A DNA stretch of 64,000 nucleotides from Clostridia bacterium (GCA_035628995.1 DASPIR010000023.1:558001-622000); one strand, 5' to 3'; counted from the first letter of the stretch, positions 16,356 through 46,269 are shown. Translations and numbers: made by a program. Notes: a model not told the origin generated them from the sequence alone.

Positions 16356-18476
16356 CTACGGGATTATTATCTGTTTGGGATCCTCAACGAAACTGGAATC
16401 TTTTCTGTCAATTCCCAGCTGCCCGTATTCATTGAATCCCCATGCCATGAGCTTTCCACCCGTTGTCAAAGCCAGAGTATAGCTTTCACCGCATGCAAGC
16501 TGCTTTATGTCAGCCAGGTAATCTACCTGCATGGGCTGTTTAATAATATTGCCTAAGCTCGGACCCAGTTGCCCGTTCATATTGTCACCCCACGCCCAAA
16601 GCATCCCATTTTTATCTAATGCGAAGCTGTGGTTGCCAGCAGCCGTCACCACTGCTATATCTCCCAGTCCCTCTATTGTTCTTGGGCTCATGAATTTTGC
16701 TGGAAGGTCGTTTCCTAACTGTCCATATTCATTGCTGCCCCATGACTTAACCAAACCGTCGCTGTCCAGTGACAGCACATGACCTTCACCTATGCTTACA
16801 CTGTCAATATAGCTGCATCCACTTACAACTCTGGGCTTTCCCCTCACATTGTCCTCCTTGTTTGGTGAAAACCCAAGCTGACCGCTGAAATTATTTCCCC
16901 AACCCCATACAGAGCCTCCTCTTTTTACCGCCATTGCACATTCATCCCCAGCCTCTATTTCTGCTATTGCCGAGAGTTCTTCCACTCTCAAAGGTTTTGA
17001 TGTATCCATTTTCTTTTTTGCCCGCTTAGGCTCATAGGAGCTGTTTCCCCAAACCCATACAGTTCCATTGCCCGCCAATGCCATCGAAAAGCCGTTTCCG
17101 GCGGATACCGACACTGACTTTTTCAATTCCGCTATATGTACAGGCAGCAGCCTGTCTTCATATGTACTATCTCCAAGCTCACCGCTGCTGTTGCTTCCCC
17201 ATGCCCATACAGTGCCGTCCTCCTTTAGTGCAAGGGTATGAGAATGACCAGTAGATATATATTTTACTCCTTCCATTCCTTTCACCTTCACCGGATGCAT
17301 GCTGCTTTCCCTGGTTCCATTTCCCAGCTGCCCATAGCCATTGTCTCCCCACATCCAAACAGTTCCATCCTGCATCAATGCAGCTGCAAAAGCAGAGGAT
17401 GCTGATACCATTTTCACATCCTTCAGCCCTGGCACTTCCAAAGGAGTCCTTTGAATATATTCTCCTCCATCCCCAAGCTGCCCATGGCTGTTATCCCCCC
17501 AAGTCCATACCGTTCCATCCTGCTTGAGTGCTGCTATATGGGAATTCCCTGCAGCAATATCCCTCACAGCTTCAATTCCCGTTATTCTACCAAGCTGCAT
17601 ATCTTTCTGATTCCACTTCCAAAGGAATCCTGACTTATCAAGAGCAATCATTTCATTAGCCCCGTAGGCTGCCAGTTTTTCAATCCCATAGACCCCTTCG
17701 AGCTTATTTGTGAATTGTCCGTTTATAGTCCAATACCATAAGCTGCCGTCCTTTGACACTGCATAGGTGAGTTTGCTGGATTCATATATAAGCATTATTT
17801 CTTCCAGGTTTTCTATTCCCTCCGGTTTATGCAAATACCCTCGCAAGAACCAAGCCCTAGAATTATTGTCTATTACAAAAGCATTATATCTTGATGCCGC
17901 TATGCTTGTAATACCTTTTGCATGATTTACCTTTCTGGGTGGATGCTTCTGCGTCTCTGACGCCTTGTATCTGTAATCACCCCATAAAAATACAGTGCCA
18001 TCGTTCTTAATTGCCATTGCATAGTTAATACCGGCAGAGACAGCTTGAATCTCAGTCAGCTCCTTGATCCTGGCTGGCTTTTTTATGCGGCTGCCGATCT
18101 TTTCCGGGTTTAATATTCCAAGCTCGTTATTGCCTGCTCCCCATACTGTGCCATCTTTTTTAACAGCAAGCAGATATCCGTTTCCCATAGAGATGGACCC
18201 AATATCTTCAAGTCCTTCAAGCCTTACCGGAGAAAAAACATATTTGTCCCTGGCTTCTCCCAGCATGCCGGAGCTGTTATCCCCCCAGCCCCACACTGTT
18301 CCATCGCTTTTTAGCACAACTGTGCTGTCCATGAAGGCTTCAACTTGGATTACTTCAATATTTGCAGTTCCAACCTTTGAAGTACCCTCTCCCCTCGTGA
18401 AGACAAGCGTACTGCTGCATATAATCAATAGAAAAAGCAAAATGGCTATAGCCTTTATTCTTGGAGTCCTTTCCAC
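16356..18476 (-). CDS. Exported RCC1-repeat (beta-propeller) protein
   Basis: The 706-residue protein starts at a GTG (18476) behind GGGGAGTG and has a signal peptide or N-terminal anchor (IKAIAILLFLLIICSSTLVF). The rest is made of about 14 RCC1/ATS1-type repeats, each close to G-T-V-W-x-W-G-D-N-x-x-G-Q-L-G followed by a S-x-G-x-x-x-x-x-A-L turn. Repeats 3-6 are degenerate. Fourteen repeats would make two seven-bladed propellers. Bacterial RCC1 proteins are mostly uncharacterised cell-surface binding proteins, and the ligand is unknown. No enzyme motif is visible. An upstream ATG (18530) lacks a ribosome site. Confidence 0.85.
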   Translation of the reverse strand: MERTPRIKAIAILLFLLIICSSTLVFTRGEGTSKVGTANIEVIQVEAFMDSTVVLKSDGTVWGWGDNSSGMLGEARDKYVFSPVRLEGLEDIGSISMGNGYLLAVKKDGTVWGAGNNELGILNPEKIGSRIKKPARIKELTEIQAVSAGINYAMAIKNDGTVFLWGDYRYKASETQKHPPRKVNHAKGITSIAASRYNAFVIDNNSRAWFLRGYLHKPEGIENLEEIMLIYESSKLTYAVSKDGSLWYWTINGQFTNKLEGVYGIEKLAAYGANEMIALDKSGFLWKWNQKDMQLGRITGIEAVRDIAAGNSHIAALKQDGTVWTWGDNSHGQLGDGGEYIQRTPLEVPGLKDVKMVSASSAFAAALMQDGTVWMWGDNGYGQLGNGTRESSMHPVKVKGMEGVKYISTGHSHTLALKEDGTVWAWGSNSSGELGDSTYEDRLLPVHIAELKKSVSVSAGNGFSMALAGNGTVWVWGNSSYEPKRAKKKMDTSKPLRVEELSAIAEIEAGDECAMAVKRGGSVWGWGNNFSGQLGFSPNKEDNVRGKPRVVSGCSYIDSVSIGEGHVLSLDSDGLVKSWGSNEYGQLGNDLPAKFMSPRTIEGLGDIAVVTAAGNHSFALDKNGMLWAWGDNMNGQLGPSLGNIIKQPMQVDYLADIKQLACGESYTLALTTGGKLMAWGFNEYGQLGIDRKDSSFVEDPKQIIIP

Positions 18477-18584
18477 TAAAATCACTCCCCAATAGGTGAT
18501 TTTGAAATTATCATATTTATATTTACTCAAGAATATTGATAGTGAGAACAGCCATGTTCATTTTTAGCATCATTTTACTCAAGT

Positions 18585-40282: not shown

Positions 40283-40312
40283 CCTCGAACCTCGAACCAC
40301 GTACCCCGCACC
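40283..40312. repeat. Heptamer array 6c, inverted relative to 6a/6b
   Basis: Units CCTCGAA, CCTCGAA, CCACGTA, CCCCGCA. On the opposite strand they read GGTGCGG, GGTACGT..., like array 6a. The array touches the stop codon of the GAPDH-like gene. Confidence 0.88.
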
Positions 40313-41565
40313 TATATCATATTCTTATCTACATATACAGTTAGTTTCCCAAGACAGTTGACATAGTTGCCGAACTCGTTGTCATACCACCCAAATATCT
40401 TTGCGTGTGTGACAGGCAAATTGATGTCCTGTGTAGTATCTATGCCATACTCCCTTAAGGTCTCTGCATAAAGCGGCAAAAATCCCGTTCTTGTATGTGT
40501 TTCATGCCCCTCGATAATAGCTGCTGCCTGGCATCCTATCAAATCAGAGGATACATTCTGCTCTTCGCTGAATATAAGAAGGTCTTTCTGGGCGCCTGCT
40601 GCTGCCTTCCTATAAATACTATTAATAAACTCTCTGTTTATCTTCGGATCTCCGGTTTCGTTCAAGTCGGTCTGAAAGGTTATGTTTAACGAAATAAGTG
40701 ATACCGTACTTGTAGGCACCCTTACCGAGTCAGCCATAAACCCTACCTTCTTGATTTCGGGGAGTATCTCTTCCAAAGCAATGGCAGCGCCTGTTGTTGT
40801 AGGAATAATATTGTTGAATACTGACCTGTTTCGCCTAAGATCCTTGGTGCCTGCTTCAGGAGCCGCATCCAGTATGTTTTGATTGTTTGTAGCAGAATGC
40901 ACTGTAGACATTGATGCAGTTATTATCTTCGAAGTCTCTTCTGTCTCCAAAAGGGGCTTGATCATATGCGCCAACCCTGTTGTAGTACAGCTTGCCGCTG
41001 ACAAAATGTGATGCTTTGCCGGGTCATAGCTCGCATGGTTTACACCGTATACAAACAATGCACTGTCATCAGGCATCTTTTGTGAGGAATCCTTTATCTT
41101 AAAAGGAGCACTTGCAATTACTTTCTCAGCCCCTGCCTCCAAATGGCCTCTGATGCTTCCCCTTGGGTTATCAGCAGGCTGTGCCGGGTCTAAAAATACG
41201 CCGGTGCAATCTACAACCAATCTTACTCCTTCTTTTGCCCAATCTATATTCCTTGGATTTCGTTCCTTTTTTAGTATCTTAACAGTAATACCATTCATTT
41301 CAAGAATACATTCAGCTTCATCCAATACCTTAACATCACAGGAGTTACCTGTGTATCCATACAGAAACCGATCAAGAGAACCGTAGGTGGAATCTGTAGT
41401 AAGATAACGAATAATGTCTTCAACCTTCCGGCCTACTTCACGTCCGGCATTTATTACTATTCCGTCAAAATGCCTTAAATTAAGATGATTCCATAGTGTA
41501 AGCTTACCTATTCTGCCTACTCCGTTTATACCAAGCAATCTTTTGCTTTTTAAAGGTACATTCAT
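40312..41565 (-). CDS. Divergent long glyceraldehyde-3-phosphate dehydrogenase family protein
   Basis: The 417-residue protein has the GAPDH plan: NAD-binding INGVGRIG near residue 13, the active-site segment AASCTTTGLAH, STVHSATNNQ, NIIPTTTGAA, RVPTSTVSL and the terminal WYDNEFGNY. It is 80 residues longer than the usual enzyme and departs from the standard SNASCTTN (here SAASCTTT). It may be a paralogue with another aldehyde substrate or cofactor preference. No glycolytic neighbours are present. The stop codon coincides with the edge of a heptamer array. Confidence 0.85.
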   Translation of the reverse strand: MNVPLKSKRLLGINGVGRIGKLTLWNHLNLRHFDGIVINAGREVGRKVEDIIRYLTTDSTYGSLDRFLYGYTGNSCDVKVLDEAECILEMNGITVKILKKERNPRNIDWAKEGVRLVVDCTGVFLDPAQPADNPRGSIRGHLEAGAEKVIASAPFKIKDSSQKMPDDSALFVYGVNHASYDPAKHHILSAASCTTTGLAHMIKPLLETEETSKIITASMSTVHSATNNQNILDAAPEAGTKDLRRNRSVFNNIIPTTTGAAIALEEILPEIKKVGFMADSVRVPTSTVSLISLNITFQTDLNETGDPKINREFINSIYRKAAAGAQKDLLIFSEEQNVSSDLIGCQAAAIIEGHETHTRTGFLPLYAETLREYGIDTTQDINLPVTHAKIFGWYDNEFGNYVNCLGKLTVYVDKNMI

Positions 41566-41762: not shown

Positions 41763-42021
41763 GCATTAACTTTGTATATCAGCGAACACTTATAAGTCTT
41801 TGGGTAACAGAATAGAGCTTGATACGTAGGAAAATCCGTAAGGTTTACGTGATGTAAACCTAGCACATACCATGATGTGGGCTACGCCCACTACTAGATG
41901 TAACCTTTTGCTTATGCAAAAGCTTTGGACGTTGGGTTTATGTGCGTTAGGATTTTACAAGTATCGAGCTCTAATTCTGTCCAAAGCTTATACTGTGTGA
42001 GTCGATATACAAAGTTAATGC
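41763..42021. mobile_element. MITE-like element, 259 bp
   Basis: The element starts and ends with perfect 18-bp terminal inverted repeats (GCATTAACTTTGTATATC and its complement). Similarity between the arms continues imperfectly for about 80-100 nt on each side. The centre holds three more hairpins (GGTTTAC/GTAAACC, GTGGGC/GCCCAC, CTTTTGC/GCAAAAG). It has no coding frame. It fills most of the 474-nt gap between the GAPDH-like and PPDK-like genes. No clear target-site duplication was seen. The rest of the gap (41566-41762) shows nothing I can name. Confidence 0.75.
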
Positions 42022-42039: not shown

Positions 42040-45000
42040 TTATTCATATTGAATTTCGTATGCACCTGCATATACATTTCCAAGATTGCCGTCCACGGAT
42101 ATCTTATCACCAGAGCTGAAGCTTACTCCATTAATAGTACACCTTTTTTCTGCTTCATTGACCAGCAATCCCTTGCAGTTCACTACACATACTTTTCCCA
42201 GGCTTGCCGCAGTAACTGCAGCATGGGAGGTAGCTCCCCCCTTGCCGGTAACAAGCCCATCACAGTTGAATATCATCGGTATATCGTCAGGAACTGTGTC
42301 CGGCCTTACCAATATACGTTTTTCATCAGGATTCTTCCTAATGGACTCCATCAAATCATCCATGTCAAAGGACAGAACCCCGGTCATCGCACCCCCGCCA
42401 ATTCCAATTCCACGTCCCACCAGCTTCATTTCATCCGGGGCCGGTACAAATGTGGCAATGGTCTTTTGCTTTTTGAGCTTCTGGTTCCTTGTCTGAAGGA
42501 TGTATAAATCATCAGGATTGTCGGACTCGAATGTGAATTCAATCTCCTGGTGCACAAAACCATATCTTTCAATGAGCCGTGTGGACAAATCCAGCAAAGC
42601 CTTGTAAATGTTGGGGAAAGCTGACTGGAGTGATAAGCTGCAGTCGCTGTAAAACTCCCTGCGCTGGCTTTCAGAGATAGGCAGAGTATGCACAAGCCCC
42701 GACACTATATCCTCGCCCTGACTGCACAGTGTAAAATCACCGTATAGGTTTATGCCCGACTTATCGTTCAATGGGTTATGGGTAAATAATACTCCAGTTC
42801 CAGAGCCGGAAGATAAATTCCCCAGAGCCATTTTTTGAACTATGACCGCTGTGCCCCATTCATCTGCAATCTGCAGATGCTCTCTATAATATATCGCCCT
42901 TCGGGAGGACCATGACTCAATTACGTTGTGTATAGCCTGCTTTAGCTGCTTAAATGGATCTTTTTCAATTATGACTCCATAATCCCCCAGCACCTTCTTG
43001 TAAGAATAAGCTATATTCCTCATCTGCTCAGGAGTGAACTGTATTTTCTGCTCCACTCCGTACCTTTCCTTATGCTGAAGTATCACACTGTCAAATATAT
43101 CTCTATCGATTCCATAAGCCATGCCCCAGCTCTGAATAAAACGCCTGTAGCAATCCCAGGCAGTCCATGCGTGATCAGTCTTCTGGCTGAAAATCTCAGC
43201 TATTTCATCATTCATTCCCACATTCAGGAAGGTCCGCATAGCACCGGGCATCGAGATGGCTGTACCTGATCGGACCGAAAACAGCAGCGGATTCTTGGGA
43301 TTTCCGAACTGCTGCCTGGTAACCTTCTCCACCTCCCAAATATGATTGAGTATAAACTGGTCCATCTCCTGCTCCATAAACGGATGCTCCAAAACAGTGT
43401 TCTTATGCCTGAATACTTCCGTTGTGAGTACAAAGCCCGGAGGTATAGGGAAATCATATGAAATCATCTTCTTTAAAAAGTATGCCTTTGCTCCAAGAAA
43501 CACGGGATTATCCATCTCAACCGTTTCCTTGTAAAGAGGGCTAATAGTCAAATCAGGGTCATATGTCATCATATTATTTATAATATCTCCGGAGTAGCTG
43601 TCTATCATATTTCTTAAGGTGCTGATTATGTTGGTTATGAAATTATCCAGGTCCTGTACTAAGAAAGCAGAAAACAGGACTTCTCTTAAGAATTTCTCAG
43701 ATTCCATGTGATAAAGCTGCTTATTCTCCGGCTCTGATAATGACCCTTTAAAAGTGAGCACCTGAGGTATAACCTCTTTTAGCGGCCGTTCATAAACATC
43801 CAGAAAGTATTCGCTTATTATCTGCTTGATATTTTGCGCCATAAACTGGAATATATTTATATATTGATCCAGTGAGAAGCTTGGGGAAGTAAGGCTGTAC
43901 TTGAACATTTCGAAGTTGGAATTAAACCCCTGATTGTATATGCCATCCAGTTCAAGTCCTTCCTTGAAAAGCTCCAATACGTCGTAAACATGTCTGAAGG
44001 TCTTCGCCGTTATATACTCCAAGTTAACAGACTGCAGCAGTTCTACCATCATTTTTGATGCAGCCTTTTCAAGTCTGAACATCAACCCCAGCGCTTCAAA
44101 CTTTGGTTCAATATACTGCCCATACATCGAAGGTATTCCTATCGCTATATGACGTTTATAATATATGTTCTCCAAGGCTTCGCTTGTATCAGGGTCTACG
44201 ATTATCTTTTTCAGATGCTGCATCAGCTTATAGACATGACCAAGGGCTGCACCTATTTCATTTCTCTCCAGATTCTCCTGCAGCCCTTCTATATCCTTGT
44301 TGCTGAAAAATCTATAGCTCTTTAGCATTGATATTATATCTTCTGATTCCAATGTATATTTTTCCAGCAGCAGCGAGTGAAGCTCCAGTATATAGCCGAC
44401 TCTCTTTTTATCCCGGCTGTTGCTTGAAGAAATAGCAGAAATAGTTTGTTCAAGCTCATCTACATCTATTAGCAGCAGATGCATTGGGGTGGTTTCCTTC
44501 CTTAAGCAAAGCTCCGCGAGGATATCATGGACATGTATATACCATTCGCTCTTGATATCCAACTGTTCAATCACATCTTCCGGTACAACCTTCTTCAGTG
44601 GCTCAATATTCCCGTCATACCAGTACTGCACTATCTTCCTGGTTAGCTCTATATGCGTATTATTGCTCTCAGTATGTATCTGCTTCCTCAAAAAATGAAT
44701 GAGCCTGTCTTTTCTTCTGGATAGCTCATCTACGGCTGTAGTTACTTCCCTCAGCTTGCCTTCTGCGCCTATTTCCCTGAAATATACGGGAAATATTCTG
44801 GCAAGCTGCTTCATTTGCTTATATACAGGGGCTATGTCTGAGTTCAGAAGCTTTGTGACATCTCTCTGGAAAAGGTCTGTATCAGATATGAATATCCCAC
44901 CCAGCTTCAAATTTACTATAAGCGCAGACAAAAGCTCCCTCATGGCATCCGGCGAATACTCTACCAGCTCAAGCCAAACCCTTATGTTCTTGACATGATT

Positions 45001-46128
45001 GGTATCCACCTGTATTTGCCAATCATTGTTAACTGAAAGCTCACCGGGATATATAAAGCCGAATCTTATAAGCCCATTTACAAAATAAGAAATAACCTCA
45101 TGGTCTCCTGTATCTATGACCTCTCTGCCCAAGGTTTGAATGCAGTCCAATACCGTCCCCGCATGCTGTTCCTTCAGCTCTTCAAAAAGTGCAATTATAT
45201 TGGCAAGAAAAGTCATCGTATCATTTTCATCCAGCTCCTTCAGTACATTTCGGAGCAGCCTGTTCATATCATAAAGCAAGTGGTTGTTAAGCTGTGTCAT
45301 CCCAGGCAAATGAAGCAGATAGAATATGTAGTATATCTTCTCAAGAGAAGTATCAAACTGTTCGCTGAATCTGCGGAAGTAATTGGAAATGTCATTGAAA
45401 AAGAGCAGCTCGCACAGCTCCTTCCATTGAGTTGCGTCTGCAAGCTGTGCTCTAAGTCCATCAAAGAATGGTTTTCCTATAAGAATAATTTTGTCATTGT
45501 ATTCTGAATGAAATAGTGAGCTTTTTTCTTGGAACCATTTTTCTACATTTGAAGTGCTTTCCCAATAATCAATGCACTTCCCAAGCAATACCCCCGTCAT
45601 ATCCACTATAGTCTGGTTGTATTCCGGCAGCTCAGCTATTTTGTTCAGATAAGTTTTGAAGTATCCTGAGTTGCGTATATATAGAAGCTCATGCTTCTCC
45701 ATGTCAGCTTTGATTATATCTATGCATTGGTGAATAATGCTTTTGGGAAAATCCCTTAGCTTTGCAAGTCTGTCCATGAATTTTATTAGTGTTGTTATAA
45801 GAAGCTCTCTCTGACTCTCTTTAAGGTTCGCTTCAAAAAGCTTCTTAAATATGTTAACAAGTACAGTAAGTGCCTTTTCAGACTCTTCAAGAGAATTATA
45901 GAACCACAGGTCAGTCAGGCTTATATTATGCAGGTTCTCAATCACATACTGATAGTTGATATAGTGGTGGTTAAGCTCTTTTATGAATTCCTGTGTGCGC
46001 TTATATATTCCCCAGTAGGACTTGGAAAGCTCACCAAACCACTGGTGTTCCAGAGGTATGTCAATCTCCTTGTCGCGGGTCTGCGCAAGATTAACCTCCA
46101 GAGCTTTAGATGAAAAACTTTTCTCCAT
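42040..46128 (-). CDS. PPDK-like ATP-grasp/phosphohistidine protein with a large N-terminal helical region
   Basis: The 1362-residue protein ends in two domains of the pyruvate phosphate dikinase family: a nucleotide-binding domain (about 874-1225) with SVRSGTAISMPGAMRTFLNVG, and a swivelling phosphohistidine domain (about 1275-1355) with GGATSHAAV, His near residue 1302. The PEP/pyruvate TIM barrel that should follow is absent; the protein ends about 55 residues after the histidine. Residues 1-870 are a long helical region unlike any domain I know. By analogy to rifampin phosphotransferase and glucan water dikinase, the N-terminus may bind the acceptor. ATG 46128 fits the GGAGG site. Confidence 0.75.
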   Translation of the reverse strand: MEKSFSSKALEVNLAQTRDKEIDIPLEHQWFGELSKSYWGIYKRTQEFIKELNHHYINYQYVIENLHNISLTDLWFYNSLEESEKALTVLVNIFKKLFEANLKESQRELLITTLIKFMDRLAKLRDFPKSIIHQCIDIIKADMEKHELLYIRNSGYFKTYLNKIAELPEYNQTIVDMTGVLLGKCIDYWESTSNVEKWFQEKSSLFHSEYNDKIILIGKPFFDGLRAQLADATQWKELCELLFFNDISNYFRRFSEQFDTSLEKIYYIFYLLHLPGMTQLNNHLLYDMNRLLRNVLKELDENDTMTFLANIIALFEELKEQHAGTVLDCIQTLGREVIDTGDHEVISYFVNGLIRFGFIYPGELSVNNDWQIQVDTNHVKNIRVWLELVEYSPDAMRELLSALIVNLKLGGIFISDTDLFQRDVTKLLNSDIAPVYKQMKQLARIFPVYFREIGAEGKLREVTTAVDELSRRKDRLIHFLRKQIHTESNNTHIELTRKIVQYWYDGNIEPLKKVVPEDVIEQLDIKSEWYIHVHDILAELCLRKETTPMHLLLIDVDELEQTISAISSSNSRDKKRVGYILELHSLLLEKYTLESEDIISMLKSYRFFSNKDIEGLQENLERNEIGAALGHVYKLMQHLKKIIVDPDTSEALENIYYKRHIAIGIPSMYGQYIEPKFEALGLMFRLEKAASKMMVELLQSVNLEYITAKTFRHVYDVLELFKEGLELDGIYNQGFNSNFEMFKYSLTSPSFSLDQYINIFQFMAQNIKQIISEYFLDVYERPLKEVIPQVLTFKGSLSEPENKQLYHMESEKFLREVLFSAFLVQDLDNFITNIISTLRNMIDSYSGDIINNMMTYDPDLTISPLYKETVEMDNPVFLGAKAYFLKKMISYDFPIPPGFVLTTEVFRHKNTVLEHPFMEQEMDQFILNHIWEVEKVTRQQFGNPKNPLLFSVRSGTAISMPGAMRTFLNVGMNDEIAEIFSQKTDHAWTAWDCYRRFIQSWGMAYGIDRDIFDSVILQHKERYGVEQKIQFTPEQMRNIAYSYKKVLGDYGVIIEKDPFKQLKQAIHNVIESWSSRRAIYYREHLQIADEWGTAVIVQKMALGNLSSGSGTGVLFTHNPLNDKSGINLYGDFTLCSQGEDIVSGLVHTLPISESQRREFYSDCSLSLQSAFPNIYKALLDLSTRLIERYGFVHQEIEFTFESDNPDDLYILQTRNQKLKKQKTIATFVPAPDEMKLVGRGIGIGGGAMTGVLSFDMDDLMESIRKNPDEKRILVRPDTVPDDIPMIFNCDGLVTGKGGATSHAAVTAASLGKVCVVNCKGLLVNEAEKRCTINGVSFSSGDKISVDGNLGNVYAGAYEIQYE

Positions 46129-46155
46129 TTGGACATCCTCCAAGATATTATATAG

Positions 46156-46204
46156 TAATTAAAGAACCATGATATTCTAATATTATATCATGGTTCTTTA
46201 ATTA
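46156..46204. terminator. Long hairpin between GntP and PPDK-like genes
   Basis: A perfect 20-bp stem (46156-46175 with 46185-46204) and a 9-nt loop. It lies after the glycerate operon and 28 nt before the next start on the same strand. The T-tract is interrupted. Confidence 0.7.
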
Positions 46205-46269
46205 GTAACAAATTCATCGATGCAATAATCCTAAAGCTGGCAGAAGGTTTCTCCAACACAAACTGCGGC

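What the first reader, a model, noticed from the sequence alone, without database searches (positions are those of the whole stretch)
42040..46128. PPDK-like dikinase without the PEP barrel, fused to 870 unknown residues
The ATP-grasp and phosphohistidine domains are intact, with SVRSGTAISMPGAM and TSHAA, but the PEP/pyruvate domain is missing and the N-terminus is a very long helical region. The order X-ATP-His suggests ATP-driven transfer of phosphate to an acceptor bound by the N-terminal part, by analogy with rifampin phosphotransferase and glucan water dikinase. The acceptor is unknown. This is the best candidate for an undescribed enzyme here.
Basis: partly seen in the sequence, partly recalled or inferred. 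Interest (0 to 1): 0.65.

Follow-up and report, generated by a model that had tools for sequence, protein, structure and literature searches.

The report
GAPDH-linked dikinase without PEP barrel
A large, widespread and apparently undescribed bacterial enzyme keeps the ATP-splitting half of pyruvate phosphate dikinase, has replaced its pyruvate-binding half with a new helical domain, and almost always occurs with its own special GAPDH, so it probably moves phosphate at the GAPDH/phosphoglycerate-kinase step of sugar metabolism.

Summary
ORF 42040-46128 (-), ATG start, encodes 1362 aa: an ~863-aa N-terminus without Pfam or PDB match, then a PPDK-type ATP-grasp and phosphohistidine domain with every tested catalytic residue, and no PEP barrel. 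AlphaFold makes the N-terminus all-helical, so it is not a rearranged barrel: a solenoid-like repeat (about 1-375), then a domain whose invariant Arg/Lys/His/Asp/Glu residues survive at 34% identity between phyla, like an active site.

The next gene is a divergent 417-aa GAPDH with an NADP-like cofactor motif. The two genes occur in the same 6 of 398 genomes of the window's phylum and in 111 of 112 positives among 385 genomes of the Geobacteraceae phylum, usually adjacent, sometimes inside gap-dikinase-gap417-pgk-tpi operons.

Best explanation (0.45): an ATP-grasp/His-swivel dikinase for 3-phosphoglycerate/1,3-bisphosphoglycerate, serving with gap417 as a separate, probably gluconeogenic, counterpart of gap+pgk. 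The acceptor is inferred, not shown. Main rival: a regulatory histidine kinase of GAPDH, as Mycobacterium VadK is for the methylcitrate cycle. I found no description of the family in the libraries searched.

The parts
42040..46128 (-). X-ATP-grasp-His dikinase, 1362 aa (ATG start)
45004..46128 (-). residues 1-375: solenoid-like helical region, lower conservation; its few invariant residues are mostly hydrophobic or structural
   Evidence: AlphaFold and fold searches; conservation
44629..45003 (-). residues 376-500: highly conserved part of X, 12 of 27 invariant residues charged; candidate acceptor site
43819..44208 (-). residues 641-770: second conserved block (YYKRHxAxGIPSMYGxYxEPKFEALG, beta hairpin 652-673); candidate acceptor site
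42454..43506 (-). ATP-grasp domain, residues 875-1225, PPDK-type, catalytic residues intact
42043..42426 (-). phosphohistidine swivel domain, residues 1235-1362; phosphorylatable His1302 (TSHAA) at 42223-42225
40312..41565 (-). partner gene: 417-aa divergent GAPDH with Cys/His active site and NAGR instead of NDLTD at the cofactor site
46153..46207 (-). hairpin, 23-nt arms, between gntP and the dikinase; possible terminator separating the unit from the glycerate kinase/GntP genes

Best explanation
A dikinase of the PPDK type with a new acceptor domain. Shown from sequence: ATP-grasp and swivelling His domains with all catalytic residues, no PEP barrel, a new N-terminal helical region with an invariant polar core, and strict linkage to GAPDH. 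Inferred: ATP phosphorylates His1302 through the ATP-grasp site, giving AMP and, with phosphate, pyrophosphate, as in PPDK. The His domain then swings to a site in residues 376-770 and passes the phosphate to an anionic substrate, most likely the carboxylate of 3-phosphoglycerate, giving 1,3-bisphosphoglycerate. The adjacent 417-aa GAPDH, probably using NADPH, reduces this to glyceraldehyde-3-phosphate. The pair would be a separate counterpart of glycolytic gap+pgk, as PPDK or PEP synthase is to pyruvate kinase. The direction is open: the reverse (1,3-BPG + AMP + PPi to 3-PG + ATP + Pi) would save energy in glycolysis.
For: Co-occurrence: dikinase and 417-type GAPDH are found in exactly the same 6 of 398 genomes and in 112 and 112 of 385 genomes with 111 shared, 33 expected. 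Adjacency: 62 of 72 named loci with readable flanks; 85 of 111 genomes in the second phylum. Operon context: gap-dikinase-gap417-pgk-tpi and dikinase-gap417-gap-pgk-tpi, i.e. two GAPDHs with two phosphotransferases. In the window's genome the other three gap genes are each followed by pgk and the fourth is paired with the dikinase. Neighbours fit a 3-PG or gluconeogenic role: phosphoglycerate dehydrogenase after GAPDH in 7 loci, glycogen synthase and CODH/ACS-related genes beside the unit. A true PPDK is present as well in all 18 genomes checked, so the PEP/pyruvate step is already covered. The invariant basic cluster in X (R460, R472, R481, K482, H485, K658, R659, H660, K676, R685) fits an anionic ligand. 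The 417-type GAPDH has N-x-G-R where canonical ones have N-D, suggesting NADP(H) and the reductive direction.
Against: No biochemistry and no ligand site was modelled. PGK is present in 45 of 47 dikinase genomes, so the dikinase does not replace it. The N-terminus is very large for a 3-carbon acceptor, and its solenoid suggests protein binding. Acetobacterium-type genomes have the dikinase without an adjacent GAPDH, and those checked lack the 417-type. Five Bacteroidales/Chlorobiota genomes pair it with an NAD-type GAPDH only. VadK shows that a barrel-less PPDK can be regulatory (PMC13400623).
Confidence: 0.45

Rival explanations
1. Regulatory histidine kinase. The ATP-grasp/His part autophosphorylates and the helical N-terminus binds GAPDH (or a glycolytic complex), changing flux according to ATP level, as VadK does for methylcitrate-cycle enzymes.
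For: VadK (Rv1127c) is a barrel-less PPDK derivative that autophosphorylates on His422, is encoded near prpC/prpD and co-precipitates with their products (PMC13400623). The N-terminus looks solenoid-like, often a protein-binding fold. Linkage to GAPDH genes is strict.
Against: The family is a clade separate from the VadK-like short forms sampled. VadK has no X domain. The X core carries about 20 invariant charged residues across phyla, more like an active site than a docking surface. The GAPDH partner varies between two types about 32% identical.
Confidence: 0.22
2. Dikinase with another small acceptor linked to triose phosphates (for example glyceraldehyde, dihydroxyacetone, glycerate or another phospho-acid), feeding or draining the GAPDH step.
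For: Same anatomy and linkage. Glycerate kinase lies upstream in the window, and X has an anion-binding-like core.
Against: The glycerate kinase/GntP neighbours are not conserved in relatives and a hairpin separates them from the unit. Nothing beyond linkage points to these acceptors.
Confidence: 0.22
3. ATP-driven phosphodonor for PTS-type proteins (an ATP-using enzyme I analogue), because its His domain is of the PEP-utilising mobile-domain family and some loci lie beside ptsN and EIIA-man genes.
For: L237 carries hpf-ptsN-rapZ-EIIAman-rimI upstream of gap-dikinase-gap417-pgk-tpi.
Against: This context is seen in only some loci of one phylum and not in the window. The GAPDH linkage is far more general.
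Confidence: 0.05

Closest known systems
Pyruvate phosphate dikinase (PPDK, TIGR01828)
   Same: ATP-grasp and swivelling His domains, same catalytic residues, best-scoring known family
   Different: PEP/pyruvate barrel absent; new ~863-aa helical domain placed before the ATP-grasp; a true PPDK coexists in the same genomes
VadK / Rv1127c and other barrel-less PPDK forms (NF004531)
   Same: PPDK derivative without PEP barrel, linked to genes of a metabolic pathway (PMC13400623)
   Different: VadK is ATP-grasp plus His only; this family has the X domain, is linked to GAPDH, and forms a separate clade from the short forms sampled
Rifampin phosphotransferase (RPH)
   Same: ATP-grasp plus His swivel plus a separate acceptor-binding domain (PMC4844700)
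   Different: 29 bits against a cut-off of 999 for NF041857; acceptor domain unrelated in position and sequence
Phosphoglycerate kinase (PGK)
   Same: Proposed to act on the same substrate pair and occupies the same place beside GAPDH
   Different: No sequence relation; predicted AMP/PPi-forming His-phosphate mechanism instead of direct ATP/ADP transfer

Membership tests
Pyruvate phosphate dikinase | ATP-grasp and His domains with catalytic residues K22, R92, D321, E323, Q335, R337, H455 | tested here: met
   Conserved in 83-84 of 84 members; D321 is Glu in 79 of 84
Pyruvate phosphate dikinase | C-terminal PEP/pyruvate TIM barrel | tested here: not met
   No such domain; N-terminus all-helical, no profile match to the barrel
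Pyruvate phosphate dikinase | Whole-protein score above TIGR01828 cut-off | tested here: not met
   367 against 843 bits
VadK-like short PPDK | ATP-grasp plus His only; NF004531 above cut-off | tested here: not met
   1362 aa; 299 against 456 bits; separate clade from six short forms
VadK-like short PPDK | Autophosphorylation and regulation of neighbouring enzymes | not testable with these tools
   Needs protein
Rifampin phosphotransferase | NF041857 score and ATP-RIF-His order | tested here: not met
   29 against 999 bits; X lies before the ATP domain
Glucan water dikinase | Phosphohistidine domain before the ATP-binding domain, starch-binding modules (own knowledge) | tested here: not met
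   Here ATP-grasp precedes His and no carbohydrate-binding family is found; GWD sequences were not compared directly
Phosphoglycerate kinase | PF00162 domain | tested here: not met
   No PF00162 match in the protein
3-PG/1,3-BPG phosphotransfer activity | 3-PG-dependent AMP/PPi formation | not testable with these tools
   Needs assay
GAPDH (partner gene) | Gp_dh_N and Gp_dh_C domains, catalytic Cys and His | tested here: met
   Both domains over cut-off; SCTT and VH motifs present
GAPDH type I (partner gene) | TIGR01534 above cut-off | tested here: not met
   313 against 367 bits: a divergent subfamily

The most novel reading that the evidence does not exclude
A 3-phosphoglycerate,phosphate dikinase: a second, AMP/PPi-linked way to make or use 1,3-bisphosphoglycerate besides PGK, acting with a dedicated NADPH-type GAPDH, present in many anaerobes of several phyla and with an acceptor domain of undescribed fold.
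Probability: 0.4. Interest if true: 0.9.

Novelty: new variant of a known kind. Interest (0 to 1): 0.72.

Why it matters
Lower glycolysis and gluconeogenesis are thought to be fully known. A conserved two-gene unit of unknown reaction, present in 29% of the genomes sampled from one phylum and sitting in gap-pgk-tpi operons, implies a missing reaction or regulator at the GAPDH/PGK step in acetogens, syntrophs and metal reducers. It would affect their energy budgets and metabolic models, explain why they keep a second, divergent GAPDH, and add a new acceptor domain to the PPDK/RPH/GWD superfamily. The hypothesis can be tested directly with two purified proteins.

Tried and rejected
Rearranged PEP barrel: rejected, since the AlphaFold models are helical with one beta hairpin and hhalign gives no match. 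Known fold for X: residues 1-450 resemble alpha-solenoids only generically; residues 355-863 alone gave no Foldseek hit at E <= 0.001 and only middling helical Z-scores, so the fold is unassigned rather than proven new. Pfam on 64 members of the 355-863 region: only scattered weak hits. Replacement of a missing PGK: rejected, PGK is nearly always present. Glycerate kinase/GntP as operon partners: rejected as a conserved feature. I first read the canonical GAPDH next to the Bacteroidales dikinases as an independent replacement of the partner; the gap-dikinase-gap417 clusters suggest instead that an ancestral cluster lost one GAPDH, so I do not use it as independent evidence. Helical DUF47 neighbour of a Methylocella short PPDK as a relative of X: no match. 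N-terminus on plasmids or phages: none. Literature: no paper on this family in the open-access library.

Full report
1. What is there. The ORF is real and its ATG start at 46128 is supported by a ribosome-binding site and by alignment of relatives. The protein has 1362 residues. Residues 875-1225 are an ATP-grasp domain and 1235-1362 a phosphohistidine domain, closest to PPDK by HMM and PDB searches. The PEP barrel is absent. The residues that do the chemistry in PPDK are conserved in 83-84 of 84 family members from several phyla; the one change is Asp321 to Glu in most.

2. The N-terminus. It has no Pfam or PDB sequence relative. AlphaFold with 64 relatives gives a confident all-helical model (pLDDT 86.8). 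The first part resembles alpha-solenoid repeats in general. Residues 355-863 modelled alone (pLDDT 86.3) gave no clear match. Conservation is uneven. In 84 sequences down to about 34% identity, residues 1-375 hold 10 near-invariant positions, 2 of them charged, while 376-500 hold 27 (12 charged) and 641-770 hold 19 (8 charged). This is what an active or ligand-binding site looks like, and it places the probable acceptor site in the middle of X. It is inference; no pocket was computed.

3. The partner. In the window the next gene on the same strand (40312-41565) is a 417-aa GAPDH with intact active-site motifs but below the type I cut-off. All complete 417-type sequences seen carry N-x-G-R where canonical GAPDHs carry N-D; loss of that Asp is, from general knowledge of GAPDHs, a mark of NADP use. 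In 80 named loci, 62 have a GAPDH directly beside the dikinase, 10 (Acetobacterium and close relatives) do not, and 8 are cut off. Of the 62, 53 are the 417-type downstream and 9 (Bacteroidales, Chlorobiota, Cloacimonas) are canonical GAPDHs.

4. Co-occurrence. Among 398 genomes of the window's phylum the dikinase N-terminus is in 6 and the 417-type GAPDH in the same 6. Among 385 genomes of the Geobacteraceae phylum each is in 112, with 111 in common (33 expected; hypergeometric P about 1e-95, not corrected for relatedness). 85 of the 111 pairs lie within about 1.2 kb, 16 of these on opposite strands; 23 lie on different contigs, and in two genomes (G756, G937) they are more than 2 Mb apart on one contig. 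The pair is therefore kept together even when the genes are not neighbours.

5. Pathway context. Two loci of that phylum show gap-dikinase-gap417-pgk-tpi and dikinase-gap417-gap-pgk-tpi. Others have glycogen synthase or CODH/ACS-related genes beside the unit. Seven Firmicutes loci have phosphoglycerate dehydrogenase after GAPDH. In the window's genome three other gap genes are each followed by pgk, and the fourth is paired with the dikinase. PGK is present in 45 of 47 carriers and true PPDK in all 18 tested, so the dikinase adds a function instead of replacing either. The glycerate kinase and GntP genes upstream in the window are not conserved in relatives and a hairpin separates them from the unit.

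6. Mechanism. PPDK makes AMP and PPi from ATP and phosphate through a His-phosphate and passes the phosphate to pyruvate (PMC8100219). The ATP half is intact here, so His phosphorylation is very likely (VadK, with the same two domains, does it: PMC13400623). What X does with the phosphate is the open question. The metabolites specific to the GAPDH/PGK step are 1,3-BPG and glyceraldehyde-3-phosphate; of the enzymes that use 3-PG, PGK and phosphoglycerate dehydrogenase appear beside the unit. The most economical reading is phosphorylation of 3-PG (or the reverse), with the 417-type GAPDH as a dedicated partner: a two-enzyme counterpart of gap+pgk. I give this 0.45.

7. Main rival. VadK, published in 2026, is a PPDK derivative without the barrel that autophosphorylates and binds enzymes encoded nearby. 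By analogy this protein could regulate GAPDH. Against it stand the separate phylogenetic position, the large X domain absent from VadK, and its active-site-like core. It cannot be excluded.

8. Novelty. Superfamily and chemistry are known; the acceptor domain, the architecture and the GAPDH partnership are not described in any source I could search. I file it as a new variant of a known kind, with a real chance of a new reaction in central metabolism.

Noticed in passing
41763-42021: A 27-nt inverted repeat with arms 205 nt apart lies between the dikinase and its GAPDH; the 474-bp spacer is longer than in the relatives measured, which suggests a MITE-like insertion.
   Followed up: partly
window genome C28:6068-7854, C29:15837-17609, C23:494998-496781 (outside the window): Three gap-pgk pairs in one genome, two of them divergent; the extra pairs have no assigned role here.
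   Followed up: no
L197:2053-5521: On a Methylocella tundrae plasmid a barrel-less PPDK paralogue directly follows a 631-aa DUF47 protein and acyl-CoA genes; possibly another pathway-linked barrel-less dikinase.
   Followed up: partly
L192:1471-4323, L194:1-2934: Barrel-less PPDK forms on Mycobacterium branderi and Diaphorobacter plasmids lie within about 0.7 kb of separate genes annotated PEP-utilizing enzyme, possibly split multi-protein dikinases.
   Followed up: no
L237:1436-4191: A PTS-Ntr-type cluster (hpf, ptsN, rapZ, EIIA-man, rimI) is directly upstream of gap-dikinase-gap417-pgk-tpi.
   Followed up: partly
window 16356-18530: RCC1-like repeat protein of 724 aa on the minus strand, far from the finding.
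   Followed up: no
L231:4932-9099: In G807 the dikinase reads as two overlapping ORFs (651 and 794 aa); a frameshift, sequencing error or natural split.
   Followed up: no
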